A stretch of DNA of 26,635 nt from a virus, in IMG/VR virus record IMGVR_UViG_3300006353_000006, positions 1-26,635 of that record. The stretch is one strand, 5' to 3'. Shown piece after piece: positions 7,476 through 26,635 of the stretch (within the stretch, counting starts at the first letter, position 1; the number at the start of each line of letters is the position of its first letter). Made by a program: the position numbers and the translations under genes. Below the pieces are notes generated by a model. That model saw only the letters and a list, made by a program, of their open reading frames with translations, was not told the DNA's origin and did not search any database.

Positions 7476-8669
7476 TCACCCCGCGCGCTTCGGTCGTCCG
7501 GGCGTACTGCCCTTGTCGAGCCAGCTCTCCAGGCCGTCGATCTCGCGCTCGTCCTGGTCCCCGTCGATCCACTTCGTGTAGGTCCGCAGGAACATCTCGA
7601 CGCTGTGGCCGAGCTGGTTCGCGCACCAGCCAGGCGTGCGGCCGGCCATGAGCATCATCGTGGCGTAGGTGTGGCGCATGTTGTTCGGCGGGCGGTACCG
7701 GATGCCCAGCCGCTTGAGGGCCGGCGTCCAGTAGCTTCGCCTGAAGGCCCGTTCTTCGAGCCAGGGCGTGCCGTACCGCGGGTCGAGCCACACGTGTTCG
7801 CCGGCCATGCGGGTGTGCTTCGCCTGCCGGGTCAGCGCGGCCTTCGCGCGGCTGTTGAGTCGGACGTTGCGCGCCTTCGCGGTCTTCGTCTTGCTCTTCT
7901 CAACCCCGCGCACGATCGCCTCGCGCACCGTCATGTAGTCGGACGCGAGGTCGACCGATGGCCAGCGCAGGCCGAAGGCCTCGCTCGTGCGCACGCCGGT
8001 GAAGAAGCGCCATTCGATCAGGTTGGCGATCGGCTCCGGGTAGTGGCTGACGGCGTCCGCGATGATCCGCTCGGCTTCGTCAAGCGTGAACGGGTCCGGG
8101 TCTTCCTGCTGCCACTTCGCGCGTGGCACGCCGTCGACCGGGCTTGTCGTGATGAGGTCGTCGTCGACTGCGAGCGCCATCGCTTCGCGCAGCACCGAGG
8201 TGTAGTTGTTCACCGTCTTGCCGCTCAGCTCGGGCCGCGCCGCGAGCGCGGTGAGGATGTGGCTCTTCTTCAAGGCGCGCAGTGGAAGGTCGCCCAGGAG
8301 CGTGCCGGCCTTGTCGCACGACGCTTCCTTCCAGAACTTCGCGCCGCTGCTGTAGCCGGCGAGAGTCGAGCCCTCCAGGCGCTGCGCGTCGTACCACGTG
8401 TCGAGCTGCGCGCCGACGGTGATCGGGTGGCCGCCGCCGCTGTCGTTGCTGCCGGCCGCGAAGTAGTCGGCCATGCGGAAGGTGCCGTACTTGATCTTGT
8501 CCCTGATCTCCAGGCCCAGCTTGTGCGCGTACTTCACGTTCGCTGGTGTCGGCTTCATCGGCGCGCCGTCGACCATGAGGGTCGGCTTGTGGGCCTTGCC
8601 GTCGAGGATGAACTTGATGCGGATGCTGTTCGGCCGAATCTCGACCCCGCTGCCTGTGCGATTCGCCAT
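7476..8669 (-). CDS. int: Tyrosine-recombinase integrase (DUF3596 arm-binding type)
   Basis: This 397-residue protein catalyses site-specific integration at the tRNA-His attB. The N-terminus (TGSGVEIRPNSIRI, then the tract GTFRMADYF) fits the arm-binding DUF3596 domain, followed by a core-binding domain (about 84-175) and the catalytic domain. Visible catalytic residues are R227 in FTGVRTSE, K265, R332 in MRHT, H355 in LGHS and nucleophile Y364. The usual first histidine of the HxxR box is N329, which I believe occurs in this subfamily. The ATG at 8669 overlaps the preceding stop (TGATG). Its 3' end faces attP. Confidence 0.93.
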   Translation of the reverse strand: MANRTGSGVEIRPNSIRIKFILDGKAHKPTLMVDGAPMKPTPANVKYAHKLGLEIRDKIKYGTFRMADYFAAGSNDSGGGHPITVGAQLDTWYDAQRLEGSTLAGYSSGAKFWKEASCDKAGTLLGDLPLRALKKSHILTALAARPELSGKTVNNYTSVLREAMALAVDDDLITTSPVDGVPRAKWQQEDPDPFTLDEAERIIADAVSHYPEPIANLIEWRFFTGVRTSEAFGLRWPSVDLASDYMTVREAIVRGVEKSKTKTAKARNVRLNSRAKAALTRQAKHTRMAGEHVWLDPRYGTPWLEERAFRRSYWTPALKRLGIRYRPPNNMRHTYATMMLMAGRTPGWCANQLGHSVEMFLRTYTKWIDGDQDEREIDGLESWLDKGSTPGRPKRAG

Positions 8670-9199: not shown

Positions 9200-9465
9200 G
9201 GTGTCGGCTCCTGCAGCAGCTCGGGACAGAAGGGGGTCAGCACGCGGTCGAGATCCGCGAGCGCGCTCAGCGCATCGGGGCCTCGACCGGCGAAGCAGAC
9301 CTCGCCGTCGATGGGGTCGAACACCGGGTAGTCCAGGCCGGTGCTGCGGTTGACGCCGCGAACCTCGGCGTGCCAGTCGCCCTCGGTGCCATGCAGCGCG
9401 AGGCGCACGGCGTCTCCCTCTTCGGTCAGCTCGGCCAGCGCGTTCAGGATGCGAGTCGTGATCAT
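9196..9465 (-). CDS. Hypothetical protein
   Basis: This 89-residue acidic protein starts MITTRILNALAELTEEGDAV and contains beta-like segments (DAVRLALHG, GDWHAEVRGV, GEVCFAGRG). Its stop overlaps the next start in ATGA, and it lies 11 bases after the preceding gene. No family is recognised. The ATG at 9465 was chosen over the longer open frame, which overlaps a coding gene. Confidence 0.6.
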   Translation of the reverse strand: MITTRILNALAELTEEGDAVRLALHGTEGDWHAEVRGVNRSTGLDYPVFDPIDGEVCFAGRGPDALSALADLDRVLTPFCPELLQEPTP

Positions 9466-15860: not shown

Positions 15861-16772
15861 CTATGGGGTGGTGATCAGTTGGTTCGATGCCTGTTGAATG
15901 CGCTTTTCCACCCATCGCGGCATCACGAGTGGTTCGATGGTGTTGACGTAGCCGGGCCACTGGCCGCGCTGTTCGCACTCGGCGCACAGGTCGAGCAGTT
16001 GATGGACGCGTCGCTCGGCGTCGGAGATCCAGACGTCGGGCAGCATGTAGGCCGCTGCCGCGTGCGGGTAGTCGTGCTCGACGGCGATGAACACGAAGCC
16101 GAGCACCATGTCGCCGCTCGCGCGCTCGTAGCCTTCCGTGTAGTACGCCGCCTGAATGTCGTAGCCCCAGTTGTCCACCGACTTCGCGAAGCCTTCCGGG
16201 TCGGCCCGCTCGCAGGTCTTCAGGTCGAGCAGCGCGACGCCGCGCGCTTCTGTGGTCGGGTTTGTGACCCAATCGGGACGGCACTTGCAATGCAGGCCCG
16301 TCGCTTTGTCGGTCCAGAACGCGGACACCTCGGGCGAGCCGCCGCCGGCGAGCAGCGCGCCGATCTCCGGCAGCGCGCGCACCGATGCGGCCTGGCGCTG
16401 CGCGGTGAGCATCTCTGCGGCTGTGACGACCTCGAAGCCGGGCGGCACCTGCTCAAGCCACGCGCGTCCTTCCTTCGTGCGGCCATCGAGCCCTTCGGGG
16501 CGCACGCGGTAGCGATTGACCAGCTCGTCGGGTTCGAGCAGCGCGCAGTGCGCGAGCGTGCCCCTGCGCATCGACGGCGTCGGCTCGACGATCGGCCGCC
16601 CCGGGTCGAGCGTCTGTCCGTAGAAGTGCAGCGGACTGCGCGCGAGCCGGCGCAGGCCCGTCGAGCCGATCGCGCTCAGCGCGTGGTACTCCGCGTTCGG
16701 CATGCCGTGCACGATCCCGCGTGGCATCGCCGGGCTCGGGCTGCGCAGGGCGTCAAGCAGGACCGCGCTCAT
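15861..16772 (-). CDS. PD-(D/E)xK exonuclease, RecE/DUF3799-like
   Basis: This 303-residue protein carries exonuclease motifs: GTLAHCALLEP (about 71-81), E148 in SPEVSAF, RPD at 165-167, LLDLKTC with D183 and K185, and QAAYY at 207-211. That set fits the RecE C-terminal/DUF3799 nucleases, which resect double-stranded ends to feed an annealing protein. The N-terminal HGMPNAEYHA...STGLRRL pattern is also typical. The ATG at 16772 overlaps the previous stop (ATGA), excluding the longer frame. Confidence 0.85.
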   Translation of the reverse strand: MSAVLLDALRSPSPAMPRGIVHGMPNAEYHALSAIGSTGLRRLARSPLHFYGQTLDPGRPIVEPTPSMRRGTLAHCALLEPDELVNRYRVRPEGLDGRTKEGRAWLEQVPPGFEVVTAAEMLTAQRQAASVRALPEIGALLAGGGSPEVSAFWTDKATGLHCKCRPDWVTNPTTEARGVALLDLKTCERADPEGFAKSVDNWGYDIQAAYYTEGYERASGDMVLGFVFIAVEHDYPHAAAAYMLPDVWISDAERRVHQLLDLCAECEQRGQWPGYVNTIEPLVMPRWVEKRIQQASNQLITTP

Positions 16773-18826: not shown

Positions 18827-19786
18827 ATGCCTACCCGAATGGTCCGCGAGGGCATCCTGAGCAGCGAGCGCGTCAACGCGCTGGGCGATGAAGCCGAGGT
18901 GTTCTACCGCCGGCTGATGTCGAAGGTCGATGACTATGGGCGCTGCGAAGCGCACACCGCGCTGCTGCTCGCGGCGCTCTACCCGCTGAAGCTGAAGACG
19001 ACGTCCGAAGAGGACATCGAGCGCTTGTTGCACGTGGTTGAACGTGTGCGCCTGATTCGACTTTATGTCGTCGCTGGCAAGCGCTACCTGGAGATCCTGG
19101 ACTTCGGCCAGACGGTCCGCAGCAAGAGCAAGTGCCCCGCGCCGCCGCCGCTCGATGGCGGTGGCAACGGTGCGGCGCCTGCCGCGCCTGCCGTGGATTT
19201 GCCAAGCACGCGCACAGCAGATGCGGAGCAGCCGACAACGGTTGCTGCGCAGATGCTTAGCACGCCACCAGCATCCGTTGTCCTAGGCGTATCCGTATTC
19301 GGAGGCGTATCCGTATCCGAAGGCGAAGACGGGGGCGCTCCGGGCGCGCGCGCACACACGCACGCACGCGAGGGACCGCGGGAAGCCGAACCGAACGCCG
19401 AGGCTCTCGCGTCACCTGCCGGTGCGGTGTGCAAGGCCCTTCGCGGGATCGGCATGGCGCAAGTGAGCCCATCGCACCCGCTGCTGCTGGAGCTACTCGC
19501 TGCCGGCGCGACGAGCGCCGAGTTCGTCGATGCGGCCGAGAGCGCGAAGGACAAGCGCGATCCGTTCGCCTACGTGCTGAGCGTCGTGCGAGGACGGCGC
19601 GACGACGCTGCTGCTGCCGGCAAGCGTCTGCACCGCGGCCCGATGCCGCAGCGCGAGACACCGAGCCAGCGCGAGGCCCGCGAACGCGTCGAAGCGGCTT
19701 CACCGACCCTGGCGGCGCGTCGACGGCGCGCTGCGGGGCTCACCGATGCGGAGGTGGTCGATGTCACTGCCCGACGTCTGGGTTGA
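18827..19786 (+). CDS. Replication initiation protein, O-like
   Basis: This 319-residue protein opens with MPTRMVREGILSSERVNALG and then EVFYRRLMSKVDDYGRCEAH, a conserved N-terminal winged-helix domain (about 1-105) found in phage replisome organisers. A long disordered Ala/Pro/Ser region follows (about 106-205), then a helical C-terminal domain (about 206-319) that would contact the helicase loader. An origin is usually inside or near such genes; no clear iterons were seen. AAGGGG precedes the ATG at 18827. Its end overlaps the P-like gene by 26 bases. Confidence 0.8.
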   Translation: MPTRMVREGILSSERVNALGDEAEVFYRRLMSKVDDYGRCEAHTALLLAALYPLKLKTTSEEDIERLLHVVERVRLIRLYVVAGKRYLEILDFGQTVRSKSKCPAPPPLDGGGNGAAPAAPAVDLPSTRTADAEQPTTVAAQMLSTPPASVVLGVSVFGGVSVSEGEDGGAPGARAHTHAREGPREAEPNAEALASPAGAVCKALRGIGMAQVSPSHPLLLELLAAGATSAEFVDAAESAKDKRDPFAYVLSVVRGRRDDAAAAGKRLHRGPMPQRETPSQREARERVEAASPTLAARRRRAAGLTDAEVVDVTARRLG

Positions 19787-20243
19787 CCGCATCTTCGATC
19801 GGCTCATCGTGGTGTACGGCCAGGCGTTCCTGCGCCGCTGGGATGGGCTCGACCTGGCGGACGTGAAGGCGAACTGGGCCTACGAGCTGCGCGGCTTCGC
19901 GACGTGGCCCGATGGCATCCGGCATGCGCTGGAGAACCTGCCCCCCGATGGCGCGCCACCGACGGTGCTGCAGTTCCGCGCGCTGTGTCTGCGCAAGCCG
20001 CCGGCCCCACCGCCCGCGCTTCCGCTCCCGCCGGCCGATCCGCAGCGAGTCGCCGAGCTGATCGGCGCGATGCCGCGTCCGGCCGAGCGCGACCCGAAGG
20101 CCTGGGCCTGGGGACTGAAGCGGCGCGACGAAGCCAACCCGCGCAGCGTGAGCCCGCTGCAGCGCGCGATGTACCAGGAGGCGCTGCGCAGCGAACTGGC
20201 GGCGGCCGAGCGTCGGCGTCTGCTCGAAAGCGAGGAGGCGTGA
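19761..20243 (+). CDS. Helicase loader, lambda P-like
   Basis: This 160-residue protein begins MSLPDVWVDRIFDRLIVVYG. The pattern FLRRWDGLDLADVKANWAYE, LRGFATWPDGIRHALENLPP and TVLQFRALC is that of lambda P-type proteins, which bring host DnaB helicase to the O-bound origin. The C-terminus is a proline-rich linker followed by a charged helix. GGAGG lies seven bases before the ATG. The O-P gene order supports the call. Confidence 0.8.
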   Translation: MSLPDVWVDRIFDRLIVVYGQAFLRRWDGLDLADVKANWAYELRGFATWPDGIRHALENLPPDGAPPTVLQFRALCLRKPPAPPPALPLPPADPQRVAELIGAMPRPAERDPKAWAWGLKRRDEANPRSVSPLQRAMYQEALRSELAAAERRRLLESEEA

Positions 20244-21013
20244 TGCGGTTCTTCACCGGGCTGCATCAGCCGAGCGACGCGCGCCACTTCGACGCCGCGT
20301 TCATCAGCGTCAACCGCCTGCGCGTGCGCAAGGCGCCGATGCGGGCCGGCGAATGGATCATGGACTCCGGTGCCTTCACCGAGATCAGCACCCACGGCCG
20401 TTATCGCCACGACGTCGCGAGCTACGCGGCCGAGATCCGGCGCTGGGCCACGAACGGCAGCGGTCGTCTGCTCGCGGCGGTCGCGCAGGACTGGATGTGC
20501 GAGCCGTGGATCGTCGCGAAGACGGGCCTGTCGGTCGCCGATCACCAGCGCCTGACGATCGAGCGCTACGACGCGCTGCTCGCGGAGGACACCGCCGGCG
20601 CCTATGTGCTGCCGGTGCTGCAGGGCTACGCGCCCGAGGACTACGTCGTGCACCTGACGATGTACGGCGAGCGCCTGGCGCACGGGCAGTGGGTTGGCGT
20701 GGGCAGCGTCTGCAAGCGCAACGGCTCGCCCGGCCAAGTCGCCGCGGTGCTGCTGGCCATCAAGCGCGTGCGCCCGGACCTGAAGCTACACGGCTTCGGC
20801 CTGAAGACGACGTCGCTCGCCGACCCGCTCGTGCGCTCGATGCTGGACACCGCCGACAGCATGGCGTGGTGCTTCAACGCCTGGCGCAACGGTCGCAACG
20901 GCAACGACTACCGCGAGGCGAAGCGCTGGGCCAGCAACATCACGTCTCGGCCGGTGCAGGGCCTGCTCGACCTGCTGCGCGCGTCGCTGCTGCTGCGCGA
21001 GGTGGCCGCATGA
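20243..21013 (+). CDS. dpdA: DpdA-like 7-deazaguanine DNA transglycosylase
   Basis: This 256-residue TGT-fold protein has MDSGAFTEISTHGRYRHD (D41), AVAQDWMCEP (D83), LPVLQGYAPEDY, GVGSVCKRNG, HGFGLKTTSL and a late TADSMAW (D205). That motif set matches phage DpdA-type proteins, relatives of tRNA-guanine transglycosylase that swap guanine in DNA for a 7-deazaguanine. The zinc-site CxCxxC of bacterial TGT is absent. No preQ0 synthesis genes occur in the window, so the base would come from the host or from genes elsewhere. GGAGG precedes the ATG. Confidence 0.8.
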   Translation: MRFFTGLHQPSDARHFDAAFISVNRLRVRKAPMRAGEWIMDSGAFTEISTHGRYRHDVASYAAEIRRWATNGSGRLLAAVAQDWMCEPWIVAKTGLSVADHQRLTIERYDALLAEDTAGAYVLPVLQGYAPEDYVVHLTMYGERLAHGQWVGVGSVCKRNGSPGQVAAVLLAIKRVRPDLKLHGFGLKTTSLADPLVRSMLDTADSMAWCFNAWRNGRNGNDYREAKRWASNITSRPVQGLLDLLRASLLLREVAA

Positions 21014-21528
21014 TCACGTTCACGATCCTCGGCGAGCCCGCCAGCAAGGCCAACAGCCGCATTCACCGGCCGACGCCGAACGCGCCTGGCGGCGTGATGG
21101 TCATCAAGTCGAAGAAGGCGCTCAACTACGAGCGCGACGCGCTGCGCCAGATCCCGCCCGCCGCCCGCCAGCGCCTCGAAGGCCCGGTGAGCGTGACGCT
21201 TCGCATCTGGTACTCGAGCGAGCGGCCCGACCTCGACGAGTCGGTCGTGCTCGACGTCCTACAGGACCGCTGGGTCAGGGGCAAGCCGATACCCGAGCAG
21301 CACACCGTCGATCGCGAAGGCCGGCACACGATCCGTCCCGCGCAGCCCGGCGAGCGCGTGCTGGTTCAGGCCGGCGTGTACCGCAACGACCGGCAGGTGC
21401 GCGAGAAGCACGTCTTCCACGGCATCGACCGCGCGAACCCGCGCACCGAGGTCGAGATCGTCCCGCTGCAGGCGCAGCAGATCGGCCTGCCCGCCGAAAT
21501 CTTCGACGAAGCGGAGGTGCCGTTTTGA
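21010..21528 (+). CDS. RusA-like Holliday junction resolvase
   Basis: This 172-residue protein starts MITFTILGEPASKANSR. PDLDESVVLDVLQ contains D74, D76 and D82, and GVYRNDRQVREK contains D127, matching the acidic residues of the RusA fold. The Lys that follows the DxD pair in E. coli RusA is Val here, which I believe is seen in other phage relatives. It would resolve branched replication or recombination intermediates before packaging. It overlaps the preceding stop by ATGA. Confidence 0.75.
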   Translation: MITFTILGEPASKANSRIHRPTPNAPGGVMVIKSKKALNYERDALRQIPPAARQRLEGPVSVTLRIWYSSERPDLDESVVLDVLQDRWVRGKPIPEQHTVDREGRHTIRPAQPGERVLVQAGVYRNDRQVREKHVFHGIDRANPRTEVEIVPLQAQQIGLPAEIFDEAEVPF

Positions 21529-22394
21529 ACCCGTTTGCCATCAGCGGGCGGACGGCCATCAGCGTCAGTGGTGGACGCACGAGCGGCTACATGCTGTGGC
21601 GCGTGCTCCAGGCCAACGGTGGCCGCCTGCCACCCGACACGGTCGCGATGTTCGCGAACACTGGCAAAGAGGACGAGGCCACGCTGCGCTTCGTTCGCGC
21701 CATGAGCGAGGCCTGGCAGGTGCCGATCCTGTGGATCGAGTACCGCGCGACCGAGCCTGGGTACGCGCTGGTCGACTTCGACAGCGCGAGCCGGCAAGGC
21801 GAACCGTTCGCGGCGATGATCGAGAAGGAGCGGTTCCTGCCCAGCCCGGTCCAGCGCATTTGCACGTCGCGCTTGAAGGTGCGCGCGATGCACCGCCACT
21901 TCCGCGCACTCGGCTGGTTCGACGACGACGACGGCTGGGATCAAATGGTCGGCATTCGCGCCGACGAGCACCGCCGCGTCGTGAAGGTGCGCAACCGCGC
22001 CTCGCCGGAGACCGCGAAGGAGACGCTCGTCGTGCCGCTGGCCGACGCTGGCGTCGCGATCAGCGATGTGCACGCCTTTTGGCAGGACCAGCCGTTCGGG
22101 CTTGAGCTGCCGACCGATGGAAGGGGACGCACGCTCGCAGGCAACTGCGACTTGTGCTTCCTGAAGCCGGCCGCGCAGATCGTGTCGCTCATCGCCGAGA
22201 GGCCCGAGCGCGCGATCTGGTGGGCCGCGATGGAACGCCACGCCGAGACCGCCTGGTCGGACAAGCGCTCGGAGAACTACGCGCGCTTTCGCAACGACCG
22301 GCCGAGCTACGCCCAGATGGCGACTTTCGTCGACCGGCAGGGTCGCCTGTTCGACGCTGACGAAGACCCGATCGCTTGCTTCTGCGGAGACTGA
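21525..22394 (+). CDS. PP-loop protein of PAPS-reductase family
   Basis: This 289-residue protein begins at a TTG overlapping the RusA stop (TTGA), with GGAGG upstream. The PP-loop SGGRTS is at residues 15-20, followed by ANTGKED, FLPSPVQRICTSRLK (C113), VGIRADEHRR, CDLC at 208-211 and CFC at 285-287. The family includes PAPS reductases and DndC-like ATP pyrophosphatases; the cysteines could hold an Fe-S cluster. The phage substrate is unknown, so calling it sulfate reduction would be unsafe. DNA or tRNA modification is an alternative. Confidence 0.8.
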   Translation: MNPFAISGRTAISVSGGRTSGYMLWRVLQANGGRLPPDTVAMFANTGKEDEATLRFVRAMSEAWQVPILWIEYRATEPGYALVDFDSASRQGEPFAAMIEKERFLPSPVQRICTSRLKVRAMHRHFRALGWFDDDDGWDQMVGIRADEHRRVVKVRNRASPETAKETLVVPLADAGVAISDVHAFWQDQPFGLELPTDGRGRTLAGNCDLCFLKPAAQIVSLIAERPERAIWWAAMERHAETAWSDKRSENYARFRNDRPSYAQMATFVDRQGRLFDADEDPIACFCGD

Positions 22395-22397
22395 CCG

Positions 22398-22619
22398 ATG
22401 AGCGACATCGTCAACCTGAACGTGCAGCTCGCACATGCCTTCGGTCTGCCCAAGCACTGCCGAAAAGCCGTGCTCACGCTCGAATACGGCCAAGCCCCGC
22501 GCTGGGAGCTGGAGGTGTTCGCGCTGCCGACCGTCGACAACCGGACCCTGCGCGACCCGGCCGAGGCCGCGCCCGAGATCCTGCGCATCCCGTTCGTCCT
22601 GCGACTGGCGACGCCATGA
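22398..22619 (+). CDS. Hypothetical protein
   Basis: This 73-residue protein begins MSDIVNLNVQLAHAFGLPKH and is beta-rich (AVLTLEYGQAPRWELEVFAL), ending LRIPFVLRLATP. It starts three bases after the PP-loop gene and overlaps the next gene by ATGA. No family recognised. Confidence 0.6.
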   Translation: MSDIVNLNVQLAHAFGLPKHCRKAVLTLEYGQAPRWELEVFALPTVDNRTLRDPAEAAPEILRIPFVLRLATP

Positions 22620-22861
22620 CCGCATGCCCCGACTGCGTCAGCGCGAGCGAGCGCCTGTGGCACGCCTACACCGCTGGCTGTCGGGTGTGCGAAGCGCGCC
22701 GCATCGCGCGTGGCCCGCTCTGTGCCGAGGCGCGGTCGTGCGGTTTCCTGACCCCGGCGTACATGGCCGAGCTGCGCGCGGTCGCAGGCGATGACTGGCA
22801 ACCGCTGCACGAGCTGGTGCGCCGGTGCGAGGCCACGATGAAGACAACCACCCACCCCTGA
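22616..22861 (+). CDS. Small cysteine-rich protein
   Basis: This 81-residue protein starts MTACPDCVSASERLWHAYTA and has a second knuckle, CRVCEARR, giving a CxxC...CxxC zinc-binding layout close to the N-terminus, with further cysteines in LCAEARSC. A helical segment follows. The ATG overlaps the preceding stop (ATGA). The role is unknown; a compact nucleic-acid-binding zinc protein is possible. Confidence 0.65.
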   Translation: MTACPDCVSASERLWHAYTAGCRVCEARRIARGPLCAEARSCGFLTPAYMAELRAVAGDDWQPLHELVRRCEATMKTTTHP

Positions 22862-22867
22862 ACAACC

Positions 22868-23047
22868 TTGAACCTCGACCTGATCACCTGCCGCGACGGA
22901 TGCAAGCGCACCGTCGATGTCCACGAAGCCGAGCGCGCTGGCTGGACGCTTCTGCCGTCGCAGAACCGTTGGCGCTGCCCGGTGTGCTCACGCGCACTGG
23001 ACCTCGCGAACCGGCGCGCTCCTGAAGCCCTGGAGGGTTCCACGTGA
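22868..23047 (+). CDS. 59-aa zinc-ribbon protein, TTG start
   Basis: An uninterrupted short frame begins TTG-AAC-CTC (MNLDLITCRDGCKRTVDVHE) and ends EGST. Cysteines in CRDGC and CPVC form a zinc-ribbon-like pair with about 30 residues between. Its stop overlaps the next GTG start (GTGA), as throughout the operon. The lack of a clear Shine-Dalgarno site makes the exact start uncertain. Confidence 0.55.
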   Translation: MNLDLITCRDGCKRTVDVHEAERAGWTLLPSQNRWRCPVCSRALDLANRRAPEALEGST

Positions 23048-23331
23048 AGCACACCACCACGATCCACATCGATAGCTTCAGCGGTGCCGTGACGGACCTG
23101 AAGCCTGGCCAGCGCACGTCCGACAACGTGCTCGCGGTGCTCGCGAAGCATCCGCGCGTGAGCACGTGGGACATGAGCGAGTACGCCTGGTTGCGCGCTC
23201 GCATCACTGACCTGTACCAGCGCGGCCTGGTCGTCATCGACCACAGCGAGCCGTTCCCCTGGGTTCGCTACGTGCTGACCGATGCTGGCCGCGCTGCGCT
23301 CCCGAACGGCACATGGGTCCAGGCGGCATGA
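23044..23331 (+). CDS. Small winged-helix-like protein
   Basis: A GTG start gives 95 residues. The part NVLAVLAKHPRVSTWDMSEY, RARITDLYQRGLVV and RYVLTDAGRAAL is arranged as helix-helix-wing, typical of winged-helix DNA-binding proteins. A GGAGG site lies eight bases upstream of the GTG. It may act as a local regulator or bind replication intermediates. It overlaps its neighbours at both ends. Confidence 0.65.
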   Translation: MKHTTTIHIDSFSGAVTDLKPGQRTSDNVLAVLAKHPRVSTWDMSEYAWLRARITDLYQRGLVVIDHSEPFPWVRYVLTDAGRAALPNGTWVQAA

Positions 23332-23930
23332 CGCGGCAGGTCGCGGTCCTGTTCGCCCGCGCCGACAGCGTCTACAAGACGCTGCCTGGTTGCGACGTGT
23401 GGGACATCGACCGCGATGCGCTTCGCTGGCCTGGCGGTGCTCCGATCGTCGCGCACCCACCGTGCCGCGCCTGGTCGCGGATGCAGCAGTTCGCAAAGCC
23501 GCTCCCAGGCGAGCGCGAGCTGGCGGTCTGGGCCGTCGAGCAGGTCCAGCGCTGGGGTGGCGTGCTGGAGCACCCGCAGGGCTCACAGCTCTGGCGCCAC
23601 TGCGGTCTGCCCCTGCCTGGCGTGCGCGGACCGAACGGTGGATGGACGCTCGGCGTCACGCAGCACTGGTGGGGCCATCGGGCGACGAAGCAGACGCTGC
23701 TCTACGTGGTCGGTTGCGAGCCGAGCCAGATCCCGGCGCTGCCCGACCTCGTGCTGGGCGAAGGCACGCACGTGGTCAAGCGGGACACGCGCAACCCTGG
23801 CGTGCACCGGCTGAAGCACTACGTTACGAAGCCCGAACGCGAGCACACGCCGATCGCTTTCGCGAAGTGGCTGGTTGACCTGGCGCGCCGCGTCGACGTT
23901 CGGGAGGTCGAGCCATGCGCAACGATGTGA
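23328..23930 (+). CDS. Cytosine-C5-methyltransferase-related protein
   Basis: This 200-residue protein contains VAHPPCRAWSRM, recalling the PPC(Q)xxS catalytic loop of C5-methyltransferases, then GGVLEHPQGSQLW near where ENV would lie, and GVTQHWWGHRATKQTLLY, similar to the QxRxR-type motif. It lacks an obvious SAM-binding FxGxG motif and is shorter than typical enzymes. A related phage protein family exists with uncertain activity. It could modify cytosine or be an inactive relative. It overlaps the preceding stop (ATGA). Confidence 0.65.
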   Translation: MTRQVAVLFARADSVYKTLPGCDVWDIDRDALRWPGGAPIVAHPPCRAWSRMQQFAKPLPGERELAVWAVEQVQRWGGVLEHPQGSQLWRHCGLPLPGVRGPNGGWTLGVTQHWWGHRATKQTLLYVVGCEPSQIPALPDLVLGEGTHVVKRDTRNPGVHRLKHYVTKPEREHTPIAFAKWLVDLARRVDVREVEPCATM

Positions 23931-24304
23931 TCGACGAGGACTTGATCCTGAACGACCTGTTGAGCCGGTGGCACACCTGGGCCAGCGATGAGCGCACGGC
24001 GCTCGGCTACCCGACCACGGCCGCCGGCGCTGCGCAGTACCGCTGCAGCCGCCAGTACGACGACGCGAACGGCGCGCTCGACCAGGACGTGGAGAACGTG
24101 ATCATGAGCGGCGTCGACGGGTGCATCAACTCGGTGTCCCAGCCCTGGCGCAACGCGCTGTACATCAACGCCCGCAACCTGAGCACCGGCAGCACGGTCT
24201 GGCGCTCGCCGCGTCTGCCGGCCGACGATCTCGCCAGGGCGCTGCTCGTGGCCGATGCCCGCGCGATGCTGGTCGAGCACCTACACGCCCGCGAGCTGAT
24301 GTGA
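23915..24304 (+). CDS. Candidate late regulator in Q position
   Basis: This 129-residue protein has LLSRWHTWASDERTALGYP, then CSRQYDDANGALDQDV and WRNALYINARNLSTG, and a helical end ADARAMLVEHLHARE. The Trp-spaced N-terminus and helical C-terminus loosely recall phage-21-type Q antiterminators, but I see no firm family match. Its place just before a promoter-terminator pair at 24569-24647 is where Q genes sit in lambdoid phages. GGAGG precedes the ATG. Confidence 0.55.
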   Translation: MRNDVIDEDLILNDLLSRWHTWASDERTALGYPTTAAGAAQYRCSRQYDDANGALDQDVENVIMSGVDGCINSVSQPWRNALYINARNLSTGSTVWRSPRLPADDLARALLVADARAMLVEHLHARELM

Positions 24305-24510
24305 ACGTGAGCAGCAAACCCTTCCGCCGCAACGCCGTGAAGCCGGGCGACCGGCTCGTGTTCACAGATGACGAGCGGATCGAGTGCATCTTCAAAGGCC
24401 TAGGCCACGGCGGCTGCGTGATCGCAAGCCTGGTCGCGCCGATCAAGGGCCGGCCGCACGACGTCATCGGTCTGCAGAAGCACTTCCGAATCGCGGGCCC
24501 GCGGTCATAA
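24301..24510 (+). CDS. Hypothetical protein, last gene before late switch
   Basis: A GTG at 24301 overlaps the preceding stop (GTGA) and yields 69 residues: basic, with KPGDRLVFTDDERIECIFKG and CVIASLVAPIKG, suggesting a small beta-barrel, perhaps SH3- or OB-like. No motif is specific. It ends the early-right run; the following 160 bases hold regulatory elements. Confidence 0.6.
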   Translation: MNVSSKPFRRNAVKPGDRLVFTDDERIECIFKGLGHGGCVIASLVAPIKGRPHDVIGLQKHFRIAGPRS

Positions 24511-24568
24511 CCGCCCGCCGCATCCCCAACAATCACACGCCTGGTCACGCGGAAAAGCGCACGCGCGG

Positions 24569-24598
24569 TTGCGGCTCGTGAATTTCGTGTGACACAAT
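24569..24598 (+). promoter_or_regulatory. Candidate late promoter
   Basis: TTGCGG (24569-24574), an 18-base spacer and CACAAT (24593-24598) with an extended TG (TGACACAAT). The match to consensus is moderate. A terminator starts about 16 bases after the -10, which mirrors the pR'/tR' arrangement of lambdoid phages. Confidence 0.5.
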
Positions 24599-24613
24599 CC
24601 CGCCCCAAGCCAA

Positions 24614-24647
24614 GCTCGCCCATACGTTTCGTATCGGCGGGCTTTTT
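24614..24647 (+). terminator. Intrinsic terminator (tR'-like)
   Basis: GCTCGCCCATACG (24614-24626) pairs with CGTATCGGCGGGC (24630-24642) with one mismatch and one G-U, around loop TTT, and TTTTT follows. It would stop transcription before the genes at 24670 unless a Q-like factor allows read-through. Confidence 0.8.
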
Positions 24648-24669
24648 CGTTTCTGATCGGAGCACCCCC

Positions 24670-24966
24670 ATGTCCTACTCGTTCACCGTCCGCGCAAGCA
24701 GCAAGGCCGAGGCCAAGTTCAAAGTCGCCGAGGCGATGGCGAAGGTCGTCGAGCAGCAGCAGTCGCACGTGATCGACCAGAAGCAGGCGATCACGAACGC
24801 CGAGGCGTTCATCGGCCTCCTGGCCGACGACGAGACGAAGGACGTGGTCGTGAACATGCACGGCTCGATCGGCTGGACCGGCCAGCTCGGCGTCGATGCG
24901 GTGATCACCTCGGCCGGCGACGGCATCAGCGCTGCGCTCGCCACCCGGGAAGCTGCCGCCGCCTGA
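24670..24966 (+). CDS. Conserved small phage protein
   Basis: This 98-residue protein starts MSYSFTVRASSKAEAKFKVA. It has an N-terminal beta strand, a long helix (AEAMAKVVEQQQSHVIDQKQ) and a beta segment (KDVVVNMHGSIGWTG), then an Ala-rich end. Similar sequences are recurrent in phages near late genes; no function is known to me. It is the first gene after the terminator, 22 bases from its T-tract. GGAGC precedes the ATG. Confidence 0.7.
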   Translation: MSYSFTVRASSKAEAKFKVAEAMAKVVEQQQSHVIDQKQAITNAEAFIGLLADDETKDVVVNMHGSIGWTGQLGVDAVITSAGDGISAALATREAAAA

Positions 24967-24972
24967 CCCCAC

Positions 24973-25350
24973 ATGGACGCGAACGCAGGCGAGGCCACGC
25001 CGCTGGTCGGCGATGTGCAGCGCCTGAGCGTCGCCCCCGACGACGTCGTGGTGCTGACGCTTCCCGCCGGCCCGGTGTCGGAGGAGCAGCTGGAGCACCT
25101 GCGCGGTCTGCTGCAGGCGGTGTTCCCGCAGAACAAGGTGTTGGTGCTGAGCGCTCCCGCTCGGGTCACCACCATCGCGCGCGAAGACCGGATGGCCTCG
25201 ATCGACGATCGCCTGGCCCAGATGCAGGCAACCCTCGATGCCCTGGTCGACGCCTTGATCGAAGAGGAAGACCCGGAGGACGAGCCCGCCCGGACCCTCG
25301 ATGGAGACCCCTGCGGTGCCGAACGGGACCAATCCCAAGGCCTCAGCTGA
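24973..25350 (+). CDS. Hypothetical acidic protein
   Basis: This 125-residue protein begins MDANAGEATPLVGDVQRLSV. The N-terminal half shows an alpha/beta pattern (DDVVVLTLPAGPVSEEQLEH, NKVLVLSAPARV), and the C-terminal half an acidic helix that may form a coiled coil (LAQMQATLDALVDALIEEED). Its 3' end overlaps the HNH gene by 50 bases in another frame. Function unknown. Confidence 0.6.
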   Translation: MDANAGEATPLVGDVQRLSVAPDDVVVLTLPAGPVSEEQLEHLRGLLQAVFPQNKVLVLSAPARVTTIAREDRMASIDDRLAQMQATLDALVDALIEEEDPEDEPARTLDGDPCGAERDQSQGLS

Positions 25351-25657
25351 CCGCCCGAAGATCGCGCGCCTGGAGCAGCGCATCCGCACGGCTGACCTGT
25401 CGATCGCCGGCTCCGGCAACGCTCCGGTTACCCCTCGCATGCGTGGCCGCAAGCTGCAGGAGCGTCGGGCACGCTGGTTCAACGAGCACCCGCTGTGTGT
25501 GCACTGCGAGCGGCGTGGGTTGGTGCGCCAGGCGACAGAGCTGGACCACATCGTCCCCCTGTTCAAAGGCGGCAGCGACAGCGAGGCGAACCTGCAAGGC
25601 CTGTGCTTCACGTGCCATGCGGTGAAGACGGTTGAGGACATGAAGCCAGGCTTGTAG
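25301..25657 (+). CDS. HNH endonuclease next to packaging genes
   Basis: This 118-residue protein has CVHCERRG, then TELDHIVPLFKGGSDSEANL, and QGLCFTCHAVKT. That is a complete HNH nuclease with two CxxC zinc pairs: H in LDHIVPL, N in EANLQGL, H in CHAVKT. HNH proteins just before terminase genes are needed for cos cleavage in several HK97-like phages; that role is inferred from position. The ATG lies within the preceding gene. Confidence 0.85.
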   Translation: METPAVPNGTNPKASADRPKIARLEQRIRTADLSIAGSGNAPVTPRMRGRKLQERRARWFNEHPLCVHCERRGLVRQATELDHIVPLFKGGSDSEANLQGLCFTCHAVKTVEDMKPGL

Positions 25658-25888
25658 CCCGAGCCTCACAAAGCCTCTACGCGCTCGCATCGCGCGAGTT
25701 GGGGCAACCGCCCGCAGTCTCGAAAACGACGCCACCTGGGGGCCCCTGATGGCCCTGCCGGTCAAGCGCCAGGCCAATGCCGGCGCGGGTTCCGGGGGGC
25801 CTCGGGAAAAATTTAGAACTCGCGAAACGGAAACCGCCCGCGGGGGCATTCGGAGTTTTTTTTCCTACCGACAAAGGGCGCTCAGCGC
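25658..25888. other. 231-bp gene-free region, possible cos/packaging site
   Basis: No ORF is credible here. The region has an AT-rich break (GAAAAATTTAGAACTCG, about 25805-25821), a GC palindrome CCCGCGGG (in CCGCCCGCGGGGGC), and TTTTTTTT at 25857-25864 shortly before the next gene. Lying between an HNH nuclease and the packaging side, it is where a cos site would be expected, but no cleavage point can be fixed from sequence. Confidence 0.35.
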
Positions 25889-26635
25889 ATGGAACAGCAG
25901 CAGCTCGTGGACCGCATCACGATCCGGCGCGTGGCCGATCTGGTGCCGTACGCCGCGAACGCCAGGACGCACTCGTCCGCGCAGGTCGAGCAGATCGCGC
26001 GCTCGATCCGCGAGTTCGGCTTCGTCAACCCGGTGATCGTCGACGCGGACGGCGGGATCATCGCGGGCCACGGTCGCGTGCTGGCGCTGCAGCTGCTCGG
26101 GCGCGCGGAGGTGCCGACGATCGAGGCGCACTGGCTCACGCCGGCGCAGCGCCGGGCCTACGTGCTCGCCGACAACCAGATCGCCCTGAACGCCGGATGG
26201 AACGAGGAGCTGCTCGGGCAGGAGCTGGGCTCGCTGCGCGATCTCGGGTTCGACCTGAGCGTGCTCGGGTTCGCCGACGAGCGGCTGGACTCACTGTTCG
26301 GCGAGCCGCCGGCGGCCGATCCTGACGAAGCGCCGGCGGTGCCAAAAGTGGCCCATTCCAAGCCGGGCGACGTCTGGCAGCTCGGCGAGCACCGCGTGCT
26401 CTGCGGCGACTCGACGAAGGAGGCCGACCTGCAGATCCTGATGGGCGCCGACCTGGCGGACGTGGTCTGGACCGATCCGCCCTACAACGTGGCGTACGAG
26501 GGCGGCACGGGCCTGACGATCGAAAACGACAGCATGGCTGACGACGCGTTCCTCGCGTTCCTCGCGGCGGCCTTTCGCGCGCTGGCGTCGGTCACGCGCA
26601 AGGGCGCGGCGGTCTATGTTGCTCACGCTGACACC
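25889..26635 (+). CDS. ParB-like nuclease/DNA methyltransferase fusion, cut by window edge
   Basis: The frame is open from the ATG at 25889 to the end (249 residues). Residues about 8-110 are a ParB/Srx N domain (NPVIVDADGGIIAGHGR, then RRAYVLADNQIALNAGW). From about 165 a methyltransferase starts: GDVWQLGEHRVLCGDST, then TDPPYNVAYEGG with DPPY at 196-199, the catalytic motif of amino-methyltransferases (N6-adenine or N4-cytosine). The SAM-binding part would lie beyond the edge. Such fusions sit beside phage terminase genes and may protect phage DNA from restriction. Confidence 0.85.
   Translation, partial: MEQQQLVDRITIRRVADLVPYAANARTHSSAQVEQIARSIREFGFVNPVIVDADGGIIAGHGRVLALQLLGRAEVPTIEAHWLTPAQRRAYVLADNQIALNAGWNEELLGQELGSLRDLGFDLSVLGFADERLDSLFGEPPAADPDEAPAVPKVAHSKPGDVWQLGEHRVLCGDSTKEADLQILMGADLADVVWTDPPYNVAYEGGTGLTIENDSMADDAFLAFLAAAFRALASVTRKGAAVYVAHADT

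What the first reader, a model, noticed from the sequence alone, without database searches (positions are those of the whole stretch)
20243..26635. Possible DNA-modification set: DpdA-like, PP-loop, C5-MTase-like and ParB-MTase proteins
Four genes of the rightward region belong to families linked to altered DNA or nucleotide chemistry. The DpdA-like gene has no preQ0 synthesis partner in the window, so host preQ0 or an unseen gene must supply it. The PP-loop protein, with CDLC and CFC cysteine motifs and only RusA between it and DpdA, could act on the same base or install sulfur, a possibly undescribed variant of deazaguanine modification.
Basis: inference. Interest (0 to 1): 0.6.

Follow-up and report, generated by a model that had tools for sequence, protein, structure and literature searches.

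The report
Phage DpdA gene beside NinC-like gene
This piece of a temperate phage carries a real relative of DpdA, an enzyme that swaps guanine in DNA for a modified base to dodge restriction, but the neighbouring PP-loop gene is best read as an ordinary NinC-like phage gene and not as a proven partner in a new sulfur-based DNA modification.

Summary
The window is a 26.6 kb virus fragment from a temperate, lambda-style phage. The gene at 20243-21013 is a genuine DpdA (PF23859, 4e-46; confident AlphaFold model matching tRNA-guanine transglycosylases and the solved DpdA 7ui4). It lacks the usual transglycosylase zinc motif, as do all but one of 198 relatives. RusA (21010-21528), the PP-loop gene (21525-22394) and a ParB-methyltransferase start (25889-end) are confirmed. 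The 'C5-MTase-like' protein is an unassigned family (phrog_12600). No preQ0 genes were found.

DpdA probably uses host preQ0. Relatives' proteobacterial hosts mostly carry QueC (16 of 18), and some relatives instead have a queuosine-precursor transporter (PF02592) directly beside DpdA (15 of 119 loci; 0 of 160 control loci).

The PP-loop protein is NinC/PAPS-reductase-like. A colinear sister phage (L038) keeps it (73% identity) but has two DNA methyltransferases where the window has DpdA. Only 2 of 37 DpdA virus records carry its family; 0 of 46 PP-loop records carry DpdA. However, PAPS-reductase-superfamily genes of several unrelated types lie within 1.1 kb of DpdA in 14 of 152 clusters, against 3 of 160 controls, so a functional link is not excluded.

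Verdict: new member of a known kind; joint sulfur-deazaguanine pathway unproven.

The parts
20243..21013 (+). DpdA (TGT-fold DNA guanine transglycosylase family), 256 aa
   Evidence: PF23859 4e-46, phrog_1279 2e-68; AF2 pLDDT 91.5, Foldseek to TGT and DpdA 7ui4; conserved DSGAF, QDWMCE, VLQG, VGVGSVCKR, LHGFG, ADSMAW; no CxCxxC zinc motif
21010..21528 (+). RusA-like Holliday-junction resolvase, 172 aa
   Evidence: PF05866 3e-7, phrog_140 8e-12
21525..22394 (+). PP-loop protein, PAPS-reductase superfamily, NinC-like, 289 aa, TTG start
   Evidence: phrog_424 8e-40; tblastn hits annotated NinC / PAPS reductase; AF2 pLDDT 90.9, Foldseek to CysH, LarE, GMP synthetase; PADLOC SspD 3e-15; PF01507 below cut-off
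22398..22619 (+). small protein of unknown function, conserved after the PP-loop gene in L038 (58%)
19761..20243 (+). gene upstream of DpdA, overlapping its start codon; also conserved in L038
   Evidence: weak phrog_1524
18827..19786 (+). replication initiation protein (early operon)
   Evidence: phrog_5810 3e-12
   Evidence: phrog_12600 9e-70; no Pfam/PDB hit, hhalign to C5 MTases probability 5%
23915..24304 (+). small protein with a weak, non-significant antiterminator-Q match; conserved in L038 (59%)
   Evidence: PF06530 E 0.027
25889..26635 (+). ParB-like domain plus start of a DNA methyltransferase, cut by the end of the fragment
   Evidence: phrog_498 9e-90; PADLOC MTase_II 8e-69
7476..8669 (-). 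integrase: the phage is temperate
   Evidence: phrog_1 5e-45
15861..16772 (-). exonuclease VIII-like recombination gene (leftward early operon)
   Evidence: phrog_412 2e-79

Best explanation
The region is the rightward early operon of a temperate lambda-style phage. DpdA is a transglycosylase that, after replication, swaps guanines in the phage DNA for a 7-deazaguanine (probably preQ0 or a derivative) drawn from the host's queuosine pathway, as protection against restriction. It sits in an exchangeable DNA-modification slot that a sister phage fills with ordinary methyltransferases. The PP-loop protein is an independent NinC-like ATP-binding protein of the nin-type recombination block next to RusA; its substrate is unknown. 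Shown here: family, fold, operon structure, slot exchange, and the transporter and QueC context. Inferred: activity on DNA, the identity of the base, and protection.
For: DpdA family and fold. Conserved catalytic-type motifs in about 185-196 of 198 relatives. Purifying selection. Slot exchange: L038 is colinear with window 17.6-26.4 kb and has an N6/N4 methyltransferase, a RusA-type gene and a C5 methyltransferase where the window has DpdA and RusA, while keeping the PP-loop gene. Precursor supply: a PF02592 (YhhQ/QPTR-type) gene lies within 33 bp of DpdA in all 15 of 119 DpdA loci that hold one, and in 0 of 160 control loci (p = 3e-5 on clusters). Full-length QueC is in 16 of 18 proteobacterial host genomes of close relatives, including the nearest (Hydrogenophaga, 79% identity); L157's genome and the genome of L176 have the transporter and lack a full-length QueC. 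No QueC above cut-off in 37 DpdA virus records. PP-loop independence. RusA-PP adjacency in 9 of 83 PP-loop loci without DpdA. Lambda NinC is annotated as a PAPS reductase family protein of the non-essential nin region (PMC10695390).
Against: The nearest chemically tested relatives are mycobacteriophage 'singleton' DpdAs; phage Orion of that group had no modified DNA, although its host makes no preQ0 (PMC6884629). The transglycosylase zinc motif is missing, so activity is not assured. The window's host is unknown and no transporter is present in the fragment. PAPS-reductase-superfamily genes near DpdA exceed the pooled controls, so full independence of the two genes is not proven.
Confidence: 0.66

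Rival explanations
1. DpdA and the PP-loop enzyme form one pathway: the PP-loop enzyme adenylates and then thiolates or amidates the 7-deazaguanine, before or after DpdA inserts it, giving a new base.
For: Both in one overlapping operon. PP-loop, PAPS-reductase-type fold with LarE sulfurtransferase among matches and conserved Cys pairs. PAPS-reductase-superfamily gene within 1.1 kb of DpdA in 14 of 152 clusters versus 3 of 160 controls, p=0.005. DpdA in 4 of 80 loci of one PAPS-reductase type, all within about 1.1 kb.
Against: Window's PP-loop family is in only 2 of 37 DpdA records and DpdA in 0 of 46 PP-loop records. Sister phage keeps the PP-loop gene without DpdA. The DpdA-near genes are scattered among several unrelated PAPS-reductase types. 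Similar proximity to ordinary methyltransferases, 3 of 80 (p=0.19).
Confidence: 0.08
2. The PP-loop protein is an SspD/DndC-like ATP pyrophosphatase that supports phosphorothioation or another nucleic-acid sulfur chemistry independent of DpdA.
For: PADLOC SspD E 3e-15 and CysH-like fold with conserved cysteines.
Against: No SspA, SspB, SspC or Dnd partner among the annotated ORFs of the fragment (partners not searched one by one). The PP-loop family occurs widely in nin-type regions without them as far as examined.
Confidence: 0.08
3. The DpdA homologue modifies RNA, or is a catalytically inert moron gene, so virion DNA is unmodified.
For: TGT fold shared with tRNA enzymes; zinc motif absent; Orion DNA unmodified (PMC6884629).
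Against: Best family match is DpdA, not TGT (PF23859; PF01702 not detected); catalytic-type motifs conserved; purifying selection; the gene shares a slot with DNA methyltransferases.
Confidence: 0.15

Closest known systems
Phage 'singleton' DpdA (group 3 of Hutinet et al. 2019, PMC6884629; mycobacteriophage, Rhizobium RHph_TM3_3_3 and Sinorhizobium phiLM21 homologues)
   Same: Same Pfam family, DpdA without preQ0 synthesis genes, 58% identity to the rhizobial phages and about 40% to the mycobacteriophages
   Different: Proteobacterial temperate phages; zinc motif CxCxxC absent in all but one of 198 relatives, the exception being Mycobacterium phage Beezoo gp40; hosts mostly have QueC
Lambda NinC / phrog_424 PAPS-reductase-like phage proteins
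   Same: phrog_424 match, homologues annotated NinC, place beside RusA in a delayed-early block
   Different: Window gene shares a coupled operon with DpdA; direct comparison with lambda NinC not made
SspD / DndC ATP pyrophosphatases
   Same: PADLOC SspD E 3e-15, PAPS-reductase-type fold
   Different: Partner genes of the Ssp or Dnd systems not seen among the annotated ORFs
YhhQ/QPTR (PF02592) queuosine precursor transporters
   Same: Found directly next to DpdA in some relatives
   Different: Absent from the window

Membership tests
DpdA (PF23859) | Curated profile match | tested here: met
   157.8 bits against cut-off 27
DpdA (PF23859) | TGT-type fold | tested here: met
   AF2 pLDDT 91.5; Foldseek to TGT E 3e-7 and DpdA 7ui4 E 3e-6
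DpdA (PF23859) | Catalytic aspartates in conserved motifs | tested here: inconclusive
   DSGAF, QDWMCE and ADSMAW conserved, but not superposed residue by residue on TGT
tRNA-guanine transglycosylase (TGT) proper | Zinc motif CxCxxC and PF01702 match | tested here: not met
   Motif absent in the window and in all but one of 198 relatives; PF01702 finds nothing in the fragment
DpdA (PF23859) | Inserts 7-deazaguanine into DNA | not testable with these tools
   Needs mass spectrometry or an enzyme assay
PAPS reductase proper (CysH) | PF01507 above cut-off and CysH C-terminal ECG.H motif | tested here: not met
   15.2 bits against 22.5; C terminus is CFCGD
NinC-like phage PP-loop proteins | phrog_424 match and SGGRTS PP-loop | tested here: met
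   E 8e-40, motif invariant or nearly so
NinC-like phage PP-loop proteins | Homology to lambda NinC itself | not tested
   Only annotated NinC homologues in Salmonella, Rhizobium and Microcystis phages were hit
SspD/DndC | Profile match together with SspABC or Dnd partners | tested here: inconclusive
   SspD E 3e-15; no partner among annotated ORFs, partners not searched individually
C5 cytosine methyltransferase (23328-23930) | PF00145 match and SAM-binding motif I | tested here: not met
   No Pfam match; hhalign probability 5%
ParB-methyltransferase (phrog_498) | ParB domain fused to N6/N4 methyltransferase | tested here: met
   phrog_498 9e-90; only the start of the methyltransferase is in the fragment

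The most novel reading that the evidence does not exclude
PAPS-reductase-type PP-loop enzymes have been recruited repeatedly next to DpdA to chemically change the inserted 7-deazaguanine (for example nitrile to thioamide) or to replace QueC in making it, giving an undescribed class of DNA bases.
Probability: 0.08. Interest if true: 0.75.

Novelty: new member of a known kind. Interest (0 to 1): 0.33.

Why it matters
DpdA genes without preQ0 synthesis genes are the least understood group of deazaguanine phages. Their modification status was called hard to predict, and the tested Orion had none. This clade is a good test case: its hosts mostly carry QueC and so should make preQ0, some members carry a precursor transporter directly beside DpdA, and the DpdA slot is swapped for ordinary methyltransferases in a sister phage. 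The recurrent PAPS-reductase neighbours are a cheap lead for a possible new base chemistry.

Tried and rejected
PDB sequence searches gave nothing credible for DpdA, the PP-loop protein or the phrog_12600 protein. PF01702 (TGT) does not detect the window's DpdA. A first, narrow co-occurrence test with phrog_424 alone undercounted PAPS-reductase-type neighbours; a broader set of local HMMs corrected this. The idea that one PAPS-reductase type (SAGKDS) is a dedicated DpdA partner was tested in reverse and mostly rejected: 4 of 80 loci have DpdA. The C5-MTase assignment was not supported. The tblastx comparison with the Hydrogenophaga locus L125 was uninformative because of GC-rich noise.

Full report
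What the window is. It is an IMG/VR virus record of 26,635 bases, a fragment. It has a leftward operon with an integrase and an exonuclease VIII-like gene, and a rightward operon starting near 18.1 kb with a replication initiator, DpdA, RusA, a PP-loop gene and, at the right end, a ParB-methyltransferase cut off by the fragment end. This is a temperate, lambda-style layout.

Check of the observation. DpdA, RusA, the PP-loop protein and the ParB-methyltransferase start are all real. The start and stop codons of the gene before DpdA, DpdA, RusA and the PP-loop gene overlap by a few bases, so these genes are probably translated as one coupled set. DpdA and the PP-loop gene are under purifying selection. 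The protein called C5-MTase-like matches only a family of unknown function, phrog_12600. Its PPC, EHP and K.T.LY motifs align in order with C5-MTase motifs IV, VI and VIII, but the comparison is not significant and the SAM-binding motif is missing.

DpdA. The AlphaFold model (mean pLDDT 91.5) matches tRNA-guanine transglycosylases and the solved DpdA 7ui4. Motifs DSGAF, QD.MCE, VLQG, VG.GS.CKR, LHGFG and ADSMAW are kept in 185-196 of 198 collected relatives, while the zinc motif CxCxxC is absent from all but one, Mycobacterium phage Beezoo gp40. Close relatives lie in phages and prophages of Burkholderiales, Rhizobiales, Sphingomonas and others, the nearest in a bacterial genome being a Hydrogenophaga MAG at 79%. 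In isolated phages the family is the 'singleton' DpdA group, mostly mycobacteriophages. Published chemistry for that group: phage Orion had no 7-deazaguanine, as expected since its host makes no preQ0 (PMC6884629).

Where the precursor would come from. QueD and PF02592 are absent from the fragment and no QueC was among the annotated ORFs; none of 37 DpdA virus records has a QueC above its cut-off. Full-length QueC is present in 16 of 18 proteobacterial genomes holding close relatives, but in only 4 of 16 actinobacterial ones. In 15 of 119 DpdA loci a PF02592 gene, the YhhQ/QPTR family of queuosine precursor transporters (PMC11130926; PMC5372724, listed), lies within 33 bp of DpdA. None of 160 control loci anchored on ParB-methyltransferases or an N6/N4 methyltransferase has one. 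On clusters of DpdA at 95% identity the contrast is 14 of 152 against 0 of 160, p = 3e-5. Hutinet et al. had already remarked that some phages encode YhhQ homologues. This supports salvage or host supply of the precursor.

The PP-loop protein. It matches phrog_424 (E 8e-40), its phage homologues are annotated NinC or PAPS reductase, and its model matches CysH, LarE and GMP synthetase. It falls below the Pfam PAPS-reductase cut-off and lacks the CysH C-terminal motif (own knowledge of that motif; sequence). PADLOC's SspD profile gives 3e-15. In phages without DpdA it is often directly beside RusA (9 of 83 loci). In lambda, ninC is a non-essential nin-region gene annotated as a PAPS reductase family protein (PMC10695390).

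Are the two linked? The most direct test is L038, a colinear sister phage: it keeps the genes flanking this region and the PP-loop gene (73%), but instead of DpdA and RusA it has an N6/N4 methyltransferase, a RusA-type gene and a C5 methyltransferase. For the PP-loop family itself, 2 of 37 DpdA virus records carry it and 0 of 46 PP-loop records carry DpdA, with four positive controls found. A wider search with HMMs for several PAPS-reductase types changed the picture somewhat: such a gene lies within 1.1 kb of DpdA in 14 of 152 clusters, against 3 of 160 pooled control loci (p = 0.005) and 3 of 80 methyltransferase-anchored loci (p = 0.19). These neighbours belong to several unrelated types; those of the window's own type have closer relatives without DpdA. 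The most promising type, SAGKDS, has DpdA in 4 of 80 loci, all within about 1.1 kb. The loci are not phylogenetically independent, the control loci were not clustered, and the controls are few. The HMMs were partly built from genes seen beside DpdA, which favours finding them there. The fair statement is that PAPS-reductase-type genes cluster with DNA-modification genes in phage early regions, with at most a modest extra link to DpdA.

Conclusion. The DpdA is a new member of a known kind; its activity on DNA is likely but not shown. The joint sulfur-deazaguanine pathway is an open, low-probability idea that the proposed deletion and mass-spectrometry tests would settle.

Noticed in passing
L018-L021, L034-L037, L042, L137, L157, L168, L176, L202, L204: A PF02592 queuosine-precursor-transporter-type gene lies within 33 bp of DpdA in every DpdA locus that has one, upstream in some and downstream in others.
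   Followed up: yes
L038:3178-5526: Colinear sister phage has an N6/N4 methyltransferase, a RusA-type gene and a C5 methyltransferase in the place of the window's DpdA and RusA.
   Followed up: yes
L153-L162, L197 (Phenylobacterium/Caulobacteraceae): Conserved island with DpdA and, in most copies where enough flank is held, PAPS-reductase-type genes (two in several), with RadC-like and GcrA-like genes; may be a host-borne DpdA system.
   Followed up: partly
   Followed up: partly
window 20243-21013 and 197 relatives: The transglycosylase zinc motif is missing from nearly the whole DpdA clade collected here but present in Mycobacterium phage Beezoo gp40.
   Followed up: partly
window 9322-9390: ARAGORN reports a tRNA-like hit with an undefined two-base anticodon; likely a false positive.
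   Followed up: no
L041:6162-6176: GenBank annotates an attL attachment site inside the DpdA gene of Rhizobium phage RHph_TM3_3_3.
   Followed up: no
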